A DNA stretch of 64,000 bases from positions 248,001-312,000 of the forward strand of contig JABDNH010000014.1 of assembly GCA_013001055.1 (NCBI GenBank), in the 5' to 3' direction. A program made the translations under genes and the position numbers. The DNA comes from Sphingomonas sp. (GTDB lineage Bacteria > Pseudomonadota > Alphaproteobacteria > Sphingomonadales > Sphingomonadaceae). The notes below the pieces were generated by a model. The model made no database searches. It saw nothing but the letters and a program-made list of their open reading frames with translations, and was not told where the DNA came from. Below are positions 2,489 to 9,004 of the stretch, piece after piece. Each line of letters begins with the position of its first letter. The first letter of the stretch is position 1.

Positions 2489-3118
2489 TCAGCCGTCCTG
2501 ATTGGCGCGGCTGATGCCGTTGCCGTCGAGGTTCTGGCTGACGAAATCCCAGTTCACAATATTGTTGAGCACGCTCTTCAGATAGTCGGGCCGCGCATTG
2601 CGATAGTCGATGTAGTAAGCGTGTTCCCACACATCGACAGTGAACAGCGGCGTCATGCCGTGGACCACCGGCGTGTCGGCATCGTGGAGGCTGGTGACTT
2701 CCAGCTTGCCGTTGTTGAGGATCAGCCAGCCCCAGCCCGAGGCAAAATGGTTCGCGCTCTCGGTCTGGAGAGCCTCGAGCAGCTTGTCGGTGGACCCGAA
2801 ATCGCTCTCGATCATCGACTGGAGCTTGTCCGACGGCTTGGTCGAGCCTTCAGGCGCAAGGCCCATCCAGAAGAAGCTGTGGTTCCACACCTGGGCGCTG
2901 TTGTTGAACAGTCCTTTTTCGCCATGTTCCTTGGCGTGCTTGATGACGCCGGTCAGGCTCTTGTCGGAGATGTCGTGCTTGTCGTCCTCGACCATGCCGT
3001 TCGTCTTGTCGACATAGGCCTTGTGGTGTTTGCCATGGTGGTAGTCGAGCGTTTCCGCCGACATGTTGTCGCCCAGCGCATCTTTGGCGAAGGGAAGGTC
3101 GGGAAGTACGAAGGCCAT
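2489..3118 (-). CDS. sodB: Superoxide dismutase, Fe type
   Basis: The 209-residue protein is a full-length Fe/Mn superoxide dismutase that turns superoxide into peroxide and oxygen in the cytoplasm. Metal ligands are visible: a histidine at residue 27 in DYHHGKHH, a histidine in WNHSFFW near residue 80, and Asp and His in VDVWEHAYYIDYRN near 160-164. The AQVWNH context, with Gln placed before the second ligand, favours iron over manganese. There is no signal peptide. It stands alone between the exporter and pspF and has its own strong terminator. The start at 3118 gives the usual short N-terminus (MAFVLPDLPF). Confidence 0.95.
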   Translation of the reverse strand: MAFVLPDLPFAKDALGDNMSAETLDYHHGKHHKAYVDKTNGMVEDDKHDISDKSLTGVIKHAKEHGEKGLFNNSAQVWNHSFFWMGLAPEGSTKPSDKLQSMIESDFGSTDKLLEALQTESANHFASGWGWLILNNGKLEVTSLHDADTPVVHGMTPLFTVDVWEHAYYIDYRNARPDYLKSVLNNIVNWDFVSQNLDGNGISRANQDG

Positions 3119-3212
3119 CTATCTGCTCCTGTCAGGATTTGCGTTCAGTTGGCCAACGCAGCTAACGCCGATGCGTTGCACGTCAACCGGCATCTACTCG
3201 GCAACGCGCAGC

Positions 3213-4265
3213 TCAGGTCGCCTCTGCATTGAGCTGGAGGCGCTTCATGGCATGCCGGAGCTGGTCATAGCTCAGCCCCAGCGCTTCTGCTGTTGCGCGC
3301 TGGTTATAGCGGTTCTTCTCCAGCGCGTGGGAGATCACCGCCTTCTCGTATTCGGCAATGCTGGCCTTGAAGTCGTCCGTGTCGAGTTTCGCGTGCTGCG
3401 TGGTCGCCGAGGGCGCGGCGATCTCGCTGTCTTCGTCTGCCGCATCCAGTTCGGCGGCCTCGACTTCGGAATCCATCTTGATGCGCGGGGCCCACGGCGA
3501 ACGGAATGGATCGAAATTGATCTTTTCGACTTCGCGCTCAGGGTCTTCGGCGCGGTAGACGGCACGTTCGACGACATTGCGCAATTCGCGCACATTGCCA
3601 GGCCAACGGTAACTTTCGAGCCGCTCCTTCGCCTTTTTCGAAAAACCGGGCCAGTTGGGCCAGTCGAGTTCGACCGCCATCCTGCGTCCGAAGAAATCGG
3701 CGAGCAATTCGATATCGCCCTCGCGATCGCGCAGCGGCGGTAGCGTGACCACCTCGAAGCTCAAACGATCGAGCAGGTCGGCACGGAAGCGGCCCTTCTG
3801 CACGAGGTTTGGCAAATGTTCGTTGGTCGCAGCAACGATGCGCACATCGACGGATATCGGCTTGGAAGCGCCGATTGGCGTCACTTCGCCATATTCGACC
3901 GCGCGCAACAGGCGATCCTGCGCCGCCGACGACAGCGTTGCCAGTTCATCTAGGAAAAGCGTGCCGCCATCGGCCTCTTCGAAGCGACCCTGGCGGTTCC
4001 TGGATGCGCCGGTGAAGCTCCCGGCTTCGTGACCGAACAGCTCGGCCTCGATCAGGTTTTCCGGAAGCGCCGCGCAATTCATGGTAACAAGCGGGCCGGA
4101 CCAGCGCTGCGACAAGTGGTGAAGCTTCTCCGCGATCAGCTCTTTGCCGGTGCCGCGCTCGCCGATAACAAGCACCGGACGATTGAGCGGTGCGGCACGG
4201 CTCGCTCGTTCGCTCGCGTCGAGAAATGCAAGGCTTTGGCCAATCAGTTGCTTGCCGCGATCCAT
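3213..4265 (-). CDS. pspF: PspF, sigma-54 enhancer-binding activator of psp genes
   Basis: The 350-residue protein starts directly with an AAA+ domain and has no N-terminal sensory domain, as in PspF. Walker A is GERGTGKE near residue 34, Walker B is GGTLFLDELAT near 100, and an R-finger region follows. The C-terminus has a Fis-type helix-turn-helix (NRYNQRATAEALGLSYDQLR). The sigma-54 contact loop reads GSFTGA where the usual form is GAFTGA. It is divergent from pspA, and its start lies ten bases from an 18-base palindrome that is probably its own binding site. By analogy with known PspF, it should be held inactive by PspA and drive the sigma-54 promoter at 4367 under envelope stress. Confidence 0.92.
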   Translation of the reverse strand: MDRGKQLIGQSLAFLDASERASRAAPLNRPVLVIGERGTGKELIAEKLHHLSQRWSGPLVTMNCAALPENLIEAELFGHEAGSFTGASRNRQGRFEEADGGTLFLDELATLSSAAQDRLLRAVEYGEVTPIGASKPISVDVRIVAATNEHLPNLVQKGRFRADLLDRLSFEVVTLPPLRDREGDIELLADFFGRRMAVELDWPNWPGFSKKAKERLESYRWPGNVRELRNVVERAVYRAEDPEREVEKINFDPFRSPWAPRIKMDSEVEAAELDAADEDSEIAAPSATTQHAKLDTDDFKASIAEYEKAVISHALEKNRYNQRATAEALGLSYDQLRHAMKRLQLNAEAT

Positions 4266-4274
4266 ACTATTCCT

Positions 4275-4292
4275 TGGTGGGAAATCCCACCA
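4275..4292. promoter_or_regulatory. Perfect 18-base palindrome, likely PspF binding site
   Basis: TGGTGGGAAATCCCACCA has 8-base arms that pair perfectly around AA. It sits 10 bases before the pspF start and about 90 bases before the sigma-54 promoter of pspA. That spacing fits an enhancer (UAS) that could also repress pspF. The protein that binds it is inferred from position. Confidence 0.65.
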
Positions 4293-4366
4293 TTTGGCAA
4301 GATTTTTCGAACTGCCGTTGGTCGAAAAAATGAAGAAACTTTACATTCAAGAGATATCTCGGTTTT

Positions 4367-4383
4367 TGGCATGTTTCTCGCAT
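4367..4383 (+). promoter_or_regulatory. Sigma-54 (RpoN) promoter of the psp operon
   Basis: TGGCATGTTTCTCGCAT matches the sigma-54 consensus (TGGCAC-N5-TTGCA). GG at 4368-4369 and GC at 4380-4381 are exactly ten bases apart. Transcription should start near 4392, just before pspA. The sequence between it and the palindrome is AT-rich, as needed for bending (possibly by IHF). Confidence 0.8.
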
Positions 4384-4418
4384 ATATTCTTCCGACAGGG
4401 TCCTAAATGGAGCACCAA

Positions 4419-5090
4419 ATGGCAGTTTTTTCACGCGTCAAAGATATTTTCGCGGCGAATATGACCGAAATTCTCGATCGCGCCGAAGATCCGGCGCGGA
4501 TGATCCGGATGATCATTCTTGAGATGGAAGAGACGTTGGTCGAAGTCAGGGCATCGGCTGCGCGTACGATTGCGGATGGCAAGGAAATGCGCCGCGCCCT
4601 CGCTCGCCTCGATGATTTGCAGGATAGTTGGACGGAAAAAGCCGAGCTAGCACTATCCAAGGATCGCGAAGACCTTGCCAAGCAAGCGCTTTTAGAACGC
4701 CAGAAGGCGGCGGATATGGCCGACGGGCTGCGCGAAGAGATTGCTGCTATCGATGAAACGCTCAAGCAATACGAAACTGACATTGCCAAGCTTCAGGCGA
4801 AGCTGCGCGAGGCACGCGCTCGTCAGGCCGCGATCCAGACCCGCCTCGAAAGCGCGATTACGCGCGCCAAAGCACGCGAAGTGCTCCATAGCAGCCGCAC
4901 GAAGGACGCCTTCTCGCGTTTCGAAATGCTAGAAAAGCGCGCCGACTTGGCGGAAGGCACGGCCGAGGCGCTTGGTCTCGAAGGTCCCAAGAGCTTGGAG
5001 CAGGAAATTTCGGACCTCCGCTCCTCGGACAAGGTCGATGCCGAGCTTGAGGCCATGAAAGCCGCCTTGAAGGCCAAGAAATCAAGTTAG
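4419..5090 (+). CDS. pspA: PspA, phage shock protein A
   Basis: The 223-residue protein is an almost continuous coiled coil of the PspA/IM30 (ESCRT-III-like) family and has the usual length. It opens with MAVFSRVKDIFAANM, has AEDPARMIRMIILEMEETL near residue 25, KAELALSKDREDLAKQAL near 75, and the basic ARARQAAIQTRL in the middle. PspA binds damaged inner membrane and holds PspF inactive. I chose the ATG at 4419 because the family starts this way and GGAG lies six bases before it; an in-frame ATG at 4407 would add four residues. It is the first gene after the sigma-54 promoter. Confidence 0.93.
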   Translation: MAVFSRVKDIFAANMTEILDRAEDPARMIRMIILEMEETLVEVRASAARTIADGKEMRRALARLDDLQDSWTEKAELALSKDREDLAKQALLERQKAADMADGLREEIAAIDETLKQYETDIAKLQAKLREARARQAAIQTRLESAITRAKAREVLHSSRTKDAFSRFEMLEKRADLAEGTAEALGLEGPKSLEQEISDLRSSDKVDAELEAMKAALKAKKSS

Positions 5091-5123
5091 GTCCGTCCTT
5101 GAGCGGGCAAAGGGGAAGACAAA

Positions 5124-5453
5124 GTGGACTATGAAATTCTAATCCCAATTCTCGGGATTTTCGGGCTCTTCATCGCGATGCCGTGGATCATTTTCCACTA
5201 CATCACAAAGTGGAAACAGCAGGCCACTCTGTCGGTGCCTGACGAGAAACTGCTCGATGAGCTTCACAGCGCAGCGAAACGCCTCAACGACCGTCTCGAG
5301 ACAATCGAGCGCATCATGAGCGCGGAAAATCCCGACTGGAAGCAGAAGACGCTGCCGATGGAGCGCTACAAGGAAGACGATGCCGGCCTGCTGGGCCGCG
5401 CTGACGAATTGCTTGCCGAACAGGAACGACTGTTGAGCCGGAAAGGACGCTGA
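5124..5453 (+). CDS. pspB: PspB, envelope stress response membrane protein
   Basis: The 109-residue protein has one N-terminal membrane helix (ILIPILGIFGLFIAMPWIIFHY split by a Pro), a basic stop (TKWK), and a cytoplasmic coiled coil containing LNDRLETIERIMSAENPDWK. This last part matches the end of classical PspB (RIQALESILDAEHPNWR). The chain then runs about 35 residues further than enterobacterial PspB. The start is GTG at 5124. With PspC it senses membrane stress and draws PspA to the membrane, freeing PspF. It stands 33 bases after pspA and 2 bases before pspC. The RLETIERI segment is the element repeated in the six small genes after pspC. Confidence 0.88.
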   Translation: MDYEILIPILGIFGLFIAMPWIIFHYITKWKQQATLSVPDEKLLDELHSAAKRLNDRLETIERIMSAENPDWKQKTLPMERYKEDDAGLLGRADELLAEQERLLSRKGR

Positions 5454-5455
5454 CC

Positions 5456-5860
5456 ATGGCACGCTCGCCCCATCATGAAGGCCCGCCGCGTCACACCAAA
5501 TTCTATCGCGACAAGAAAAATGCCAAGTTCCTCGGCGTGTGCGCTGGTATTGCCGACTATACCGGTTTCGACGTCGCGCTGGTCCGGCTCGGAATGGTAA
5601 TGACGTTCCTGATCCCGGGATCGCCAACCATCTTATTCTACCTGCTCGCCGGTTTCTTCGTGCCCGATCGCCCTTACGAACTTGAAGGGCAGACCGCGGA
5701 TGAACAGAAGTTCTGGCAGGGTGTGCGTGCATCGCCGCGCAAATCCGCTCGCCAGATACATTCGCAGTTCCGCGATATCGATCGCCGCCTTGCTGACATC
5801 GAAAGCTTTGTCACCAGCGAGAACCGCGTGCTGGCGCAGCAGATCGACGACTTGAAATAG
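5456..5860 (+). CDS. pspC: PspC, PspC-domain membrane protein
   Basis: The 134-residue protein carries a PspC domain at about residues 20-75: KFYRDKKNAKFLGVCAGIADY, then GFDVALVRLGMV and a hydrophobic helix ending LLAGFFVPDRP. The rest is a soluble helical tail with SARQIHSQFRDIDRRLADIE and FVTSENRVLAQQIDDL, which has the same heptad style as the small genes downstream. PspC works with PspB to relay envelope damage to PspA. It lies 2 bases after pspB and 11 bases before the next gene, so it is in the same transcript. Confidence 0.92.
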   Translation: MARSPHHEGPPRHTKFYRDKKNAKFLGVCAGIADYTGFDVALVRLGMVMTFLIPGSPTILFYLLAGFFVPDRPYELEGQTADEQKFWQGVRASPRKSARQIHSQFRDIDRRLADIESFVTSENRVLAQQIDDLK

Positions 5861-5871
5861 GAGCTGGACAC

Positions 5872-6132
5872 GTGGGCGATACACTTAGTTCGGCCTTGGC
5901 ACTTCTGTTGCCTTTCACCCTGGTCGTATATGTCCTTCGCTTTGCTTTCAGCCATGCGGAACGAAAGCAGGAAATTCAGGCAATCGTCGCGCAAAAGGAG
6001 TCATCCGATCTTGAAGAACGCGTCCGCGTCCTTGAGCAGATCGTGACCGATAACAGTCCGACGCTCGCGCACGAGATCGAGGGACTGCGCACCTTGCCTG
6101 ATCCAGGCTTGACGAAAGGGAAGACAGGCTAA
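5872..6132 (+). CDS. PspB-like small membrane coiled-coil protein, array copy 1
   Basis: The 86-residue protein has a single N-terminal membrane helix (residues about 5-27, with LLLPFTLVVYVLRFAF), a basic patch HAERKQE, and a coiled coil ERVRVLEQIVTDN followed by LAHEIEGLR. The RV.VLE.I core matches PspB (R-I-x-A-L-E-S-I), but the PspB ending PNWR is replaced by L-A-x-E-I-E-x-L-R. The start is GTG at 5872 after GGAG. It is the first of six tandem paralogues after pspC. The function is not known; a membrane adaptor role within the Psp system is an inference from homology and position. Confidence 0.8.
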   Translation: MGDTLSSALALLLPFTLVVYVLRFAFSHAERKQEIQAIVAQKESSDLEERVRVLEQIVTDNSPTLAHEIEGLRTLPDPGLTKGKTG

Positions 6133-6410
6133 TGGGCGCAACCGAATTCATTCTCGTTTTTGGCAGCATCATCCTTCCGCTGCTGCTCGGATTCTACGTC
6201 ATCCGGCGCTGGTTCAACATGAAGGAGCGGCGCATGGAGATCGAGGCGACCCAAGCCGCCGAAAAGGCGGCGCAATACGCTGTGCAGAACAAGGTTCTGG
6301 AAGATCGCGTCGCCGTGCTAGAACAACTTGCGATCGATAGTGGTGCGGAGACCGCGGCGCAGATCGAGGCATTGCGACAATTGCCTGAACGAAAGGAAAG
6401 CACGAACTGA
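6132..6410 (+). CDS. PspB-like small membrane coiled-coil protein, array copy 2
   Basis: This 92-residue protein has one membrane helix at about residues 5-25 (FILVFGSIILPLLLGFYVI), then RRWFNMKERRMEIEATQAA and a coiled coil LEDRVAVLEQLAIDSGAET with AAQIEALRQLPE. The core motif DRV.VLE.L and the following A.IEALR match copy 1 closely, including the LP after the last arginine. It starts one base inside the stop of copy 1 (TAATG), so the two are translationally coupled. No enzyme motif is present. It is most likely a single-pass inner-membrane protein with a cytoplasmic helical domain. Confidence 0.8.
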   Translation: MGATEFILVFGSIILPLLLGFYVIRRWFNMKERRMEIEATQAAEKAAQYAVQNKVLEDRVAVLEQLAIDSGAETAAQIEALRQLPERKESTN

Positions 6411-6679
6411 TGGAAGCGCTCGGATTCCCCTTCAATTTCGTCATTCTCATCATACTCATCACCACCATTGGCGGCGTGGCGAGAAGCTTCGCCAAAGCCA
6501 GGGGTCAGGCAGCCGGAAAAGTCGAAAGCCAGGGCGCCGATCCAAAGCTCGAGGCGGAAAACAAGGAATTGCGCAAGGAGATCGGCGATCTTCGCGAGCG
6601 ACTGCATGTCCTGGAACGAATTACAGTCGACAAGGAAAATAGTTTGGCCCGTGAGATCGAGGATTTGAGAAACAAATGA
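6410..6679 (+). CDS. PspB-like small membrane coiled-coil protein, array copy 3
   Basis: The 89-residue protein has an N-terminal membrane helix (FNFVILIILITTIGGVA, residues about 8-25), a basic linker RSFAKARGQAAGK, and a coiled coil that ends RERLHVLERITVDKENS, then LAREIEDLRNK. The helix is preceded by LEAENKELRKEIGDL, which gives a longer zipper than copies 1 and 2. The start overlaps the preceding stop (TGATG). It shares the R.-.LERI...LA.EIE.LR signature with its neighbours. The specific role is unknown. Confidence 0.8.
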   Translation: MEALGFPFNFVILIILITTIGGVARSFAKARGQAAGKVESQGADPKLEAENKELRKEIGDLRERLHVLERITVDKENSLAREIEDLRNK

Positions 6680-7008
6680 ACGAAGAGTATCGCTTGGCCA
6701 TCGACTTGGCGCCCTTTGTCGCCATGATCGTGGGACTGATGGTCGCCGGATCGGTCATCAACACTTGGCTACGCATTCGCAACGGCTATCCGCTCGAAGG
6801 AAGCTGGGGGAATGCGATTGGCCCGAAGACCGACAAGGAAAGCCAAGAACGCATCAAGCTGCTGACCAGCGAAAATGCCCAGCTGCGCGCGGAGATGGGG
6901 TCGATAAAGGATCGGCTGGAGACAGTCGAGCGTATTGTCACCGACGATTCACATGGTATTGCCAAAGAGATCGAGGCACTGCGCAGCGAACCCAAAAAGA
7001 TCCAGTAG
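6676..7008 (+). CDS. PspB-like small membrane coiled-coil protein, array copy 4 (NGYPL type)
   Basis: The 110-residue protein has a membrane helix at residues about 10-29 (LAPFVAMIVGLMVAGSVI), followed directly by WLRIRNGYPLEGSWG and a coiled coil TSENAQLRAEMGSIKDRLETVERIVTDD with IAKEIEALRSE. RLETVERI is nearly identical to RLETIERI in PspB of the same operon. The NGYPL motif right after the helix is shared with copy 5 only, so these two form a subtype. The start overlaps the stop of copy 3 by four bases (ATGA). Confidence 0.8.
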   Translation: MNEEYRLAIDLAPFVAMIVGLMVAGSVINTWLRIRNGYPLEGSWGNAIGPKTDKESQERIKLLTSENAQLRAEMGSIKDRLETVERIVTDDSHGIAKEIEALRSEPKKIQ

Positions 7009-7018
7009 GAGCAACAAG

Positions 7019-7348
7019 ATCATCGGGCTCTCCATCCCCATTCTCGGTATGTTGCTTGGCCTTGTGGCCATCGTCGGCTGGATCTTCCTTGATTATATGA
7101 AGATCAAGAACGGCTACCCGCTGTCCGACGACGACGGAAACCTGATCCACAAGAGCAATCCGGAAGACCTGGCCGAAATCAAGCAACTTACCGCAGAAAA
7201 TCGCGACTTGGTGAACCGTCTCGAAAAGATCAGCGAACGCGTGGAAACGCTTGAGCGTATCGCGACCGACAAACCGGCACGTCTCGCCGCTGAAATTGAC
7301 GCGCTCAGTGATCTGTCGTCAGACCTTTCGAAGGAACAGACCAAGTGA
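7019..7348 (+). CDS. PspB-like small membrane coiled-coil protein, array copy 5 (NGYPL type, unclear start)
   Basis: The reading frame encodes a membrane helix (PILGMLLGLVAIVGWIFLDYM), then KIKNGYPLSDDDGN and a coiled coil ERVETLERIATDKPAR with LAAEIDALSDL, clearly paralogous to copy 4. A strong AGGAG (7007-7011) overlaps the preceding stop and points at 7019, but the codon there is ATC, followed by another ATC. The first ATG in frame is at 7049, cuts into the membrane helix and has no ribosome site. An in-frame ATG at 6935 lies inside copy 4 and gives an unrelated basic leader. I list the frame from 7019, where length matches copy 4. A base error in ATC is also possible. Confidence 0.7.
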   Translation: MIGLSIPILGMLLGLVAIVGWIFLDYMKIKNGYPLSDDDGNLIHKSNPEDLAEIKQLTAENRDLVNRLEKISERVETLERIATDKPARLAAEIDALSDLSSDLSKEQTK

Positions 7349-7587
7349 ACGAATATGAAATGGTCGCCTTCATCGTCCTCATCGTGATGGTGACCATCAT
7401 GGTGACGGCACGCTGGAAATATAAATATAGCAACCAATCAGGGATCGACGATGGTGGCTCGGCTGTCGACCCACGGCTCGAGGCCGAGGTCGAACGGCTA
7501 CGCGACCGCGTCCAGACACTCGAACGCATCGCGGTCGAGAAAGAGGACAGCCTGACGCGCCAGATCGAACAATTGCGCGACCGTTAG
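7345..7587 (+). CDS. PspB-like small membrane coiled-coil protein, array copy 6
   Basis: The 80-residue protein is the shortest of the set. It has a membrane helix at residues about 5-23 (EMVAFIVLIVMVTIMVT), a basic border RWKYKY, a short polar linker SGIDDGGSA, and a coiled coil VERLRDRVQTLERIAVEKE with LTRQIEQLRDR. The segment DRVQTLERI is very close to ERIQALESI of classical PspB. The start is GTG at 7345, overlapping the previous stop. It is the last gene of the psp array; sufE follows 21 bases later and may be co-transcribed. Confidence 0.8.
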   Translation: MNEYEMVAFIVLIVMVTIMVTARWKYKYSNQSGIDDGGSAVDPRLEAEVERLRDRVQTLERIAVEKEDSLTRQIEQLRDR

Positions 7588-7608
7588 CGCGCAGCTATTG
7601 CCGCCAGC

Positions 7609-8016
7609 ATGAGCCTGCCTGCCCTGTCCGACCTTCAGGACGAATATGAATTCCTCGATAGCGAAGATCGCTATCGGCTGCTGATCGACCTTGGGCGCAA
7701 GCTCGAACCGATGCCCGACGCGTTGAAGACCGATGCCACAAAGGTCCGCGGTTGCTCGGCCAGTGTGTGGGTCTATCCCACCAACGAAGACGGGAAGCTG
7801 CATTTCCTGGCCGATAGCAATGCGGCAATTACGAAGGGGGTGGTCGCGCTTGTGTTGGCAGCAGTGCAGGATAAGCCTGCCGCAGAGGTTGCGGCGACAG
7901 ATATCGCCGCGGCGCTCGAACCGTTCGACCTGACGCGCGAGTTGTCATCAAACCGGACACAGGGCGTGCCCAATATGATCGCGCTCGTGCGCAAGACCGC
8001 CGAGCGTCTTGCATGA
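7609..8016 (+). CDS. sufE: SufE, cysteine desulfuration protein
   Basis: The 135-residue protein has the SufE fold throughout. The sulfur-accepting cysteine is C49 in the conserved VRGCSASVWV, and the C-terminal SSNRTQGVPNMI (near residue 115) is also family-specific. SufE takes persulfide sulfur from the desulfurase SufS and passes it to the SufBCD scaffold for Fe-S cluster assembly. The other suf genes are not in the window. It overlaps the thioesterase gene by four bases (ATGA). Confidence 0.93.
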   Translation: MSLPALSDLQDEYEFLDSEDRYRLLIDLGRKLEPMPDALKTDATKVRGCSASVWVYPTNEDGKLHFLADSNAAITKGVVALVLAAVQDKPAAEVAATDIAAALEPFDLTRELSSNRTQGVPNMIALVRKTAERLA

Positions 8017-8462
8017 ACGCCCATCCGGAAGATCACGCGCGCATCGCCGATGTTTTCGATCCGAAGAAGTTTCTCGATGTTGCGGAGCATTACGGGCATG
8101 GCGCCGCGCTTGGCTACAAATACCAGGATCATGGCGTTGACTGGGTCGAGATGTCGCTCCCTTTCCGGCCCGAAATTGTCGGCGTCCCGGAAACCGGAAT
8201 ATTGGCCAGCGGCGCGATCATCAGCTTGGTCGATGCGTGCGGTGGTGCTGCCGTCTGGCAGAAACTGGGCAAGTTCGAGCCGATCGCGACGGTGGACCTG
8301 AGACTCGACTATCTGCGTCCGGCCTTTGCCGGCGAAACGGTGCTGGCGCGATGCGAGTGCTACAAGATGACCAGATCCATCGCTTTCGTGCGCGGCAACG
8401 CTTTCATTGATGAACAACGCGTGGTCGCCAACGTGGTGGGGACCTATATCCGCAACCCCTAG
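8013..8462 (+). CDS. PaaI-family hotdog thioesterase
   Basis: The 149-residue protein is a single hotdog domain. SGAIISLVDACGGAAV near residue 70 matches the catalytic helix of the PaaI/YdiI group (Gly then Asp), and the strand with ATVDLRLDYLRPA follows at about residue 92. Such enzymes hydrolyse acyl-CoA thioesters; the acyl group cannot be inferred. It is coupled to sufE by a 4-base overlap. Its stop interlocks with that of the converging J-domain gene in CTAG (8459-8462). Confidence 0.85.
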   Translation: MNAHPEDHARIADVFDPKKFLDVAEHYGHGAALGYKYQDHGVDWVEMSLPFRPEIVGVPETGILASGAIISLVDACGGAAVWQKLGKFEPIATVDLRLDYLRPAFAGETVLARCECYKMTRSIAFVRGNAFIDEQRVVANVVGTYIRNP

Positions 8463-8995
8463 CCTAGCGCCTGGCGCGCGTTTTCGTTCGTCTTTAGTAC
8501 GTCATAGGCGGCCTTCACCTTCGCAAACTCATCGGCTGCCTCTTCATCGTCGGGGTTGCGATCGGGGTGGAATTGCTTGGCAAGCGCGCGGTAGGCTTTC
8601 TTCACCTCTTCGAAGTCAACATCGGGATCGAGGCCTAGAATGTCGAGCGCGCGCATCTCATCGCGGCTGCGACTACCATCGCCCGGGCCCGCCCACTGGT
8701 AATGCGCGCTTTGGCGAAAACCGGATGCATCGCGGCTCTCATCTTGCGCGCGCTTTTTCGCTTCGGCTTCGTCCAACCCCGCGAAATAATTCCAGTTCTT
8801 GTTATATTCGGCCGCGTGCTTTTCGCAAAAATACCAACGCTCGGGACTGTTGGGCGATTTGGGCGCCGGTCGATCGCCTACCTCGCGGCAATTCACGCGA
8901 TCGCATAGGCGCACTTTGGACGCCTCGCGGCCCTTCTCCCCGTAGGAGCGCCAGCGGGGAAACCCCCAGTCGTCAGATCGCTGTCTTCTCGGCAT
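8459..8995 (-). CDS. J-domain protein (C-terminal DnaJ domain)
   Basis: The 178-residue protein has its J domain at the C-terminus: DILGLDPDVDFEEVKKAYRA, then LAKQFHPDRNPDDEE with the HPD triad near residue 145. The N-terminal half holds a small Cys/His-containing region (CDRVNC and WYFCEKHAAEYN), which may bind a metal. It should stimulate an Hsp70 ATPase; the client is unknown. I start at the ATG at 8995 (MPRRQRSDDWGF) because the longer frame would run through a hairpin and into the RNase P RNA gene. This J-domain arrangement is common in alphaproteobacteria. Confidence 0.85.
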   Translation of the reverse strand: MPRRQRSDDWGFPRWRSYGEKGREASKVRLCDRVNCREVGDRPAPKSPNSPERWYFCEKHAAEYNKNWNYFAGLDEAEAKKRAQDESRDASGFRQSAHYQWAGPGDGSRSRDEMRALDILGLDPDVDFEEVKKAYRALAKQFHPDRNPDDEEAADEFAKVKAAYDVLKTNENARQALG

Positions 8996-9004
8996 AGCCC
9001 TTAA

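What the first reader, a model, noticed from the sequence alone, without database searches (positions are those of the whole stretch)
5872..7587. Array of six tandem PspB-like membrane coiled-coil genes behind pspABC
Six small genes in a row (80-110 codons each) follow pspC with overlaps or gaps of about ten bases. Each encodes one N-terminal membrane helix and a short coiled coil with the core R-V/L-x-x-L/V-E-x-I/L, which aligns with the ERIQALESI element of classical PspB and with RLETIERI in the pspB of this operon. In all six the PspB ending (PNWR) is replaced by L-A/T-x-E/Q-I-E/D-x-L. They look like a family that arose from pspB by duplication and then diverged in the helix and linker. 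A set of single-pass proteins with matching zippers could form mixed oligomers and set the sensitivity of PspA and PspF to different membrane insults.
Basis: partly seen in the sequence, partly recalled or inferred. Interest (0 to 1): 0.8.

Follow-up and report, generated by a model that had tools for sequence, protein, structure and literature searches.

The report
Extra membrane-stress sensor genes behind pspABC
Behind the pspABC membrane-stress operon this sphingomonad carries six small membrane coiled-coil genes of one family that recurs, several at a time and in a kept order, behind pspABC in its relatives, so their stress sensor probably has more parts than the textbook pair PspB and PspC.

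Summary
The six genes are real, in one run with pspABC, and five could be tested and are under purifying selection. They do not look like copies of this operon's pspB: 22 PspB sequences form one strongly supported clade that excludes them, and homologs occur away from psp in other Proteobacteria. In the window's family (Sphingomonadaceae in the GTDB sense, inferred from named relatives) 68 of 70 psp operons read carry at least one such gene, 3-7 in 55 of the first 56, in a conserved class order (E-C-A-B-D). Eleven psp-less genomes of the family show no match. One genome that lacks PspB and the PspC tail keeps two array genes in its sigma-54-type psp operon. Best reading: a multi-part PspB/PspC-like membrane sensor that docks PspA through a shared helical tail while the membrane heads diverge. 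A 2024 paper mentions 'PspB duplicates' in psp operons in one line. PspA binding and mixed oligomers are inferred, not shown. New variant of a known kind.

The parts
3213..4265 (-). pspF, sigma-54 activator, divergent from the operon
   Evidence: TIGR02974 488.3 bits, cut-off 443.55
4366..4382 (+). sigma-54-type promoter TTGGCATGTTTCTCGCA before pspA
   Evidence: score 20.5 of 23; sites scoring 20-21 at like distance in the 4 other window-genus loci
4407..5090 (+). pspA
   Evidence: TIGR02977 250.3 bits, cut-off 242.95
5124..5453 (+). pspB (true PspB, GTG start)
   Evidence: PF06667 9.2e-26, TIGR02976 2.2e-22, both over cut-off
5456..5860 (+). pspC with a C-terminal helical tail that shares the array motif
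   Evidence: TIGR02978 2.4e-34, over cut-off; tail helix 94-133 in an AF2 model of low overall confidence
5872..6132 (+). array gene 1, class A
   Evidence: weak PspB (0.0051) and PspC (0.024) profile matches
6132..6410 (+). array gene 2, class A
   Evidence: no PspB or PspC match listed
6410..6679 (+). array gene 3, class B by clustering, unplaced in the tree
   Evidence: weak PspC match 0.052
6676..7008 (+). array gene 4, class C (linker NGYPLExSWG)
   Evidence: AF2: helices 3-36 and 53-103; weak PspC match 0.0066
7019..7348 (+). array gene 5, clustered with C but grouping with class E in the tree; possible AUC start at 7019 (else ATG 7049)
   Evidence: PspB match 4.9e-05, below cut-off
7345..7587 (+). 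array gene 6, class B
   Evidence: PspB match 4.1e-06, 27 bits against a cut-off of 51.7

Best explanation
The six genes encode accessory membrane subunits of the Psp response. Each puts one helix in the inner membrane (N terminus outside, C terminus in the cytoplasm) and shows the cytoplasm a long helix whose end is built like the tail of PspC, the part that has been reported to bind PspA. They are made with PspA from the PspF/sigma-54 promoter. The membrane heads differ from class to class and probably respond to, or sit with, different membrane states or partners; the common tail feeds them into one output, docking of PspA at the membrane and release of PspF, alone or as mixed coiled coils with PspB and PspC. 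Shown: the genes, the family, the class order, selection, co-occurrence with psp, likeness of tails. Inferred: one transcript, topology, docking, mixed oligomers, head-specific sensing.
For: At least one array gene in 68 of 70 f1 psp operons read. psp status was tested in 81 f1 genomes: 70 have pspA or pspC; 11 lack both, and none of the 11 matches the array profile. Conserved class order; ECABD exactly in 30 of 77 named loci. G045 keeps pspA, a tail-less pspC and array genes A and B behind a sigma-54-type site, with no PspB match in the genome. Class D sits beside a second pspA-pspC pair in 4 window-genus genomes, and a D-like gene does in G113. Between classes A, B, C, E, F tails are about 0.50 identical, heads 0.17. 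C-flank more positive than N-flank in 231 of 280. Tight packing (starts were picked nearest to the previous stop, which favours short gaps): 104 of 272 overlap, 123 within 30 bases, 45 farther. [quoted passage not shown] the PspC zipper is needed for PspA interaction (PMC3068692, abstract and passages).
Against: No interaction was tested; only monomer models were possible. No general sign that tails within a genome match each other or PspC better than between genomes (A-E z 2.5, E-pspC z 2.0, all classes z 1.9, but A-pspC z -1.9 and B-pspC -0.7), which a tightly co-evolving mixed oligomer might show. Class D lacks the PspC-like ending. Class E does not follow the charge rule (13 of 37). G691 has pspABC and no array gene. 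Homologs elsewhere mostly lack a sigma-54-like site (3 of 22 score 20 or more), so the family's original role may not be Psp. The psp-less genomes were found among genomes without an array match; psp was not tested in most array-bearing genomes.
Confidence: 0.5

Rival explanations
1. Simple pspB duplicates: recent copies of the operon's pspB that raise PspB dosage.
For: Weak PspB matches of g1, g4, g5, g6; profile relation 95%; a published line on 'PspB duplicates'.
Against: 22 PspB rows monophyletic at 100/99, array rows outside; no gene reaches a PspB cut-off; the P-x-W ending is missing; homologs exist away from psp (G004, G011).
Confidence: 0.08
2. Effectors rather than sensors: a small-protein scaffold that stabilises damaged membrane or PspA assemblies, with no part in signalling to PspF.
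For: Late position in the operon; varying copy number; a reference title calls Yersinia PspB and PspC regulators and effectors (seen, paper not read).
Against: Tail likeness to the PspC tail; G045, where they are the only PspB-like core and PspC-like tail found.
Confidence: 0.25
3. Silencing brakes: tails that hold PspB or PspC in the off state, or compete with the PspC tail for PspA, so more genes mean a higher threshold.
For: A reference title reports that PspB-PspC cytoplasmic domains silence the Yersinia response (seen in the reference list; paper not held).
Against: None specific; direction of effect cannot be read from sequence.
Confidence: 0.15

Closest known systems
PspB (PF06667, TIGR02976)
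   Same: One N-terminal membrane helix, cytoplasmic coiled coil with R-x-x-x-L/I-E-x-I, psp operon
   Different: Below both cut-offs; no P-x-W ending; outside the PspB clade; a true PspB is present beside them
PspC C-terminal tail (end of TIGR02978)
   Same: Helical tail with R-L-x-x-[IL]-E ... L-A-x-E-I-x-x-L at the very end
   Different: No PspC domain, one membrane helix only
'PspB duplicates in the operon' and 'divergent PspB fused to PspC' of Ravi et al. 2024 (PMC11237479)
   Same: Same kind of operon; recognises PspB-like domains in PspC
   Different: In the two sections and the passages read: one line with one accession, no copy number, classes, order, separate ancestry or PspC-like tail (supplements not readable)
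Homologs outside the window's family
   Same: Same architecture and a like ERVxVLERIVTD tail
   Different: One or two genes, not seen beside psp genes in the stretches read; neighbours shared only within a family

Membership tests
PspB (PF06667 / TIGR02976) | Profile score over curated cut-off | tested here: not met
   best 21.4 of 25.6 bits (Pfam) and 27.0 of 51.7 (TIGR02976) among the six
PspB (PF06667 / TIGR02976) | Falls inside the PspB clade | tested here: not met
   22 PspB rows one clade at 100/99; all sampled array rows outside, the window's six included (93 columns, bootstrap not fully settled)
PspB (PF06667 / TIGR02976) | N-terminal membrane helix plus cytoplasmic coiled coil | tested here: met
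   hydropathy and charge, AF2 for g4, profile-profile match
PspB (PF06667 / TIGR02976) | Terminal P-x-W element (recalled as a PspB trait; seen in the window's pspB) | tested here: not met
   absent from all six by reading
PspC (PF04024 / TIGR02978) | PspC domain | tested here: not met
   no PF04024 match listed for any of the six
PspC tail module | Similarity to the PspC C-terminal tail beyond coiled-coil background | tested here: met
   92% over 35 columns against PspC of the same family; only 60% (39% with the window's six alone) against PspC of other families; PspA coiled coils 0.6%
Psp regulon member | Same transcription unit as pspABC behind a PspF/sigma-54 promoter | tested here: inconclusive
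   gene spacing and promoter motif fit; no sigma-70-type site on the + strand between 4200 and 7800; no transcript data
Psp regulon member | Binds PspA, PspB or PspC | not testable with these tools
   only single-chain models were possible

The most novel reading that the evidence does not exclude
Sphingomonads run a combinatorial Psp sensor: an ordered set of separately evolving single-pass receptors with one interchangeable PspA-docking tail, which in one lineage has replaced PspB and the PspC tail, and in which recombination between neighbours makes new head-tail pairings.
Probability: 0.3. Interest if true: 0.75.

Novelty: new variant of a known kind. Interest (0 to 1): 0.55.

Why it matters
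How PspB and PspC sense membrane stress is, as far as I know, unsolved in the few enterobacteria where it is studied. A large family of bacteria keeps up to seven PspB/PspC-like parts in a fixed order, lacks them where PspA is lacking, and in one genome has two of them where PspB and the PspC tail are missing. That gives natural variants for asking which part senses, which part holds PspA, and whether several inputs share one output. It would also give a family to proteins that reach no Pfam or NCBIfam cut-off.

Tried and rejected
Duplication of pspB as the origin: opposed by the tree. Concerted evolution or co-evolution of tails within genomes: tested against shuffled genome labels, weak or absent (figures under evidence against). 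A helix-turn-helix tail, which I first suspected from the TD motif: the models show one continuous helix in both g4 and PspC. A sigma-54 promoter in front of the homologs outside f1: not general (3 of 22 score 20 or more; 1.3% of 157 control ORFs score 20.5 or more). A sigma-54 site before pspA was also not found at a steady distance in many other loci by my crude scan, so that evidence rests on the window genus, G045 and scattered others. A first iterated profile looked like strong PspC matches, but PspC tails had entered the profile. A stricter test gave f1 PspC median 11.1 bits (56 of 56 hit), other PspC 3.0 (13 of 25 hit), other PspB 15.8 (24 of 24 hit); its background set scored up to 18.5 and appears to have held true PspB genes of f1, so I replaced it. 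A solved-structure search gave only weak matches, best the KcsA potassium channel (E 0.0072); window PspC and PspB gave none. No fold search was run: the model is two helices and would match too much. No Rfam match at gathering score in 3000-9000.

Full report
OBSERVATION. The six genes exist as described. They follow pspF(-), pspA, pspB and pspC, each of which passes its NCBIfam cut-off, and are followed at 7609 by a gene that I recall as sufE-like. The window is G000:C8:248001-312000 of a 2.08 Mb genome. Substitutions against the nearest relative fetched, L007, show purifying selection on g2 to g6. In the whole window genome the array profile (alignment A2, which includes four of the six) has six matches at E 1e-4 and six at 1e-6 with all candidates scored; those listed lie in the array.

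WHAT THEY RESEMBLE. None of the six reaches a Pfam or NCBIfam cut-off. Below cut-off, g1, g5 and g6 match PspB in Pfam; g1, g4, g5 and g6 match TIGR02976 (PspB); and g1, g3, g4, g5 and g6 match TIGR02978 (PspC) in stretches that run to its last positions, from 71-84 on in g1, g3 and g4 and from 48 on in g5 and g6. Profile-profile comparison: array against PspB of other families 95% (22 columns), against PspB of the same family 77%, against PspC tails of the same family 92% (35 columns, to the last residue), against PspC tails of other families 60%, against two PspA coiled-coil segments 0.6% each. With the window's six alone the figures are 94.5, 73.6, 92.9, 38.9, 2.7 and 0.2. PspB against PspC directly gives only 2-7%. 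So the array proteins combine a PspB-like core with a PspC-like end.

DISTRIBUTION. In 118 genomes of the order, TIGR02978 matches 113, among them all 57 of the window's family, f1. I fetched 80 of these psp loci: 55 from f1 and 25 from six other families. With the window, all 56 f1 loci have 2-7 array genes (2:1, 3:4, 4:12, 5:20, 6:15, 7:4; a gene was counted if it matched the iterated profile or had the motif plus a hydrophobic stretch). Of the 25 others, 3 have a single homolog after pspC (all in f8, from which 5 loci were fetched), 1 has another PspB-like gene with a P-x-W ending, 21 have none. By title all 80 are sphingomonads or unplaced Alphaproteobacteria or Proteobacteria bins (Sphingomonas, Sphingopyxis, Sphingobium, Novosphingobium, Blastomonas, Sphingorhabdus, Tsuneonella and others). 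77 of the 80 hold pspC in the fetched stretch and 30 of these 77 have exactly the order E-C-A-B-D (these were selected for class C, and some stretches end early). Contig lengths identify window-genus genomes G088 and G092 with Sphingomonas edaphi and S. alba. That f1 is Sphingomonadaceae in the GTDB sense is inferred from these names.

Across 298 f1 genomes 284 match A2 at E 1e-6. I followed 24: the 14 without a match and 10 of those with one match. Eleven of the 14 lack both pspC and pspA; some of these are fragmented assemblies. Of the other three, G707 has a class D gene (A2 did not report it), G722 ends at the contig edge, and G691 has pspABC followed by a sufE-like gene with no array gene between. 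In total 70 f1 psp operons were read at DNA level (55 fetched, the window, G045, and 13) and 68 have at least one array gene; one has none, one cannot be told. The psp-less genomes were not searched for class D, and psp was not tested in the array-bearing genomes beyond the 57 and the 10.

STEPWISE GROWTH. Some f1 genomes show only B (G671, G732), only D (G707), or B then D (G719, G711, G681, G669, G706, G672) in the 1.5 kb seen past pspC; G677 shows one A-like and G664 one B-like gene there. Most of the others have E-C-A-B-D or a variant of it. New genes therefore seem to have been added between pspC and B. In the window genus the operon lacks D, but D sits elsewhere with a second pspA and pspC in 4 of 5 genomes (G000, G085, G088, G092; for G098 the stretch that I fetched held another PspC gene). 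A gene that reads as D-like sits with a second pspA-pspC in G113.

ORIGIN. Outside f1, 44 of 61 genomes of the order have a match at 1e-6, mostly one; in f5 genomes G004 and G011 it lies far from pspC. In a class-wide draw 13 of 289 match at 1e-4, 5 of them f1; in a phylum-wide draw 47 of 299, 16 of them f1. Several weak matches outside f1 read as PspB itself. I read 19 such stretches outside f1: no psp gene is recognisable by eye beside them; the four f133 stretches share neighbours that I recall as coaBC- and dut-like, two f164 stretches share a small lipoprotein-like gene, and nothing is shared across families. Three of the 19 carry two homologs side by side. The tree (95 rows: the window's genes, seven random members of each class, 20 rows from outside f1, 22 PspB cut to 75-78 residues) puts all PspB rows in one clade (100/99) and every array class, the f8 singles and the outside rows apart from it; one outside row, from L211, falls weakly on PspB's side (76/44). 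It has only 93 columns, the bootstrap had not settled, and relations among array classes and outside rows are poorly resolved. I read this as an old sister family of PspB, recruited to the psp operon and expanded there.

MECHANISM. Between classes A, B, C, E and F heads differ (0.17 identity) and tails are shared (0.49-0.50). C-flanks are more positive than N-flanks in 231 of 280, the orientation described for PspB; class E is an exception. AF2 gives g4 a membrane helix (3-36), a linker and one helix (53-103), mean pLDDT 79.5, pTM 0.34; PspC's tail is one helix (94-133) in a model of low overall confidence, pLDDT 60.9, pTM 0.29, with the tail at 70-83. Published work has the PspC C-terminal cytoplasmic domain binding PspA when the system is on (PMC5596341, passages) and a putative zipper of PspC required for PspA interaction; that same paper weighs two topologies for PspC (PMC3068692, abstract and passages). 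The most telling natural variant is G045: a sigma-54-type site (CTGGCACGGCTTCTGCA, 22 of 23), pspA, an 88-aa pspC that stops before the tail with the next gene 9 bases on, array A, array B. PF06667 finds no PspB in the genome and PF04024 only this one PspC; pspF is over its cut-off on another contig. It is one genome in about 40 contigs, the only one of its genus held. There the array pair is the only PspB-like core and PspC-like tail found.

RECOMBINATION. In L007 the first array gene joins the head of window g1 to the tail of window g2 in frame. Which state is older is not settled.

LITERATURE. Ravi et al. 2024 (PMC11237479; [quoted passage not shown] A 2022 survey (PMC9239133, passages) holds no word beginning with Alphaproteobacteria or Sphingo in its main text. 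The searches listed no paper whose title or shown abstract describes the array; one search listed only 10 of 1,080 papers, and subscription papers and supplements were not readable. I therefore call it a new variant of a known kind: an expanded, partly reported part of the Psp system with an anatomy and ancestry that I did not find described.

Noticed in passing
window 7006-7048: The fifth array gene has a TAGGAG ribosome site 7 bases before ATC (7019) and no ATG, GTG or TTG there; L007 has the same, and the nine codons compared between 7019 and the ATG at 7049 show 4 silent and 0 replacement changes. Possible AUC start.
   Followed up: partly
L230 (G045:C1): Psp operon without pspB and with a tail-less pspC, keeping two array genes; pspF on another contig.
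   Followed up: yes
L245 3639-5151 (G000:C23): Second locus in the window genome: pspA2, a divergent pspC2 and a class D gene, with no pspB among them.
   Followed up: partly
L240 2728-3117 (G027:C6): The array coiled coil and tail behind a zinc-ribbon-like N terminus (two CxxC pairs by eye) in a protein that looks soluble: the module may be portable.
   Followed up: no
array alignment A2: Weak profile match (E 0.0072) to the C-terminal part of the KcsA potassium channel, recalled to be a four-helix bundle; chance or a hint of tetramers.
   Followed up: no
L213, L214: In family f133 two stretches carry a second, shorter relative directly after the homolog.
   Followed up: no
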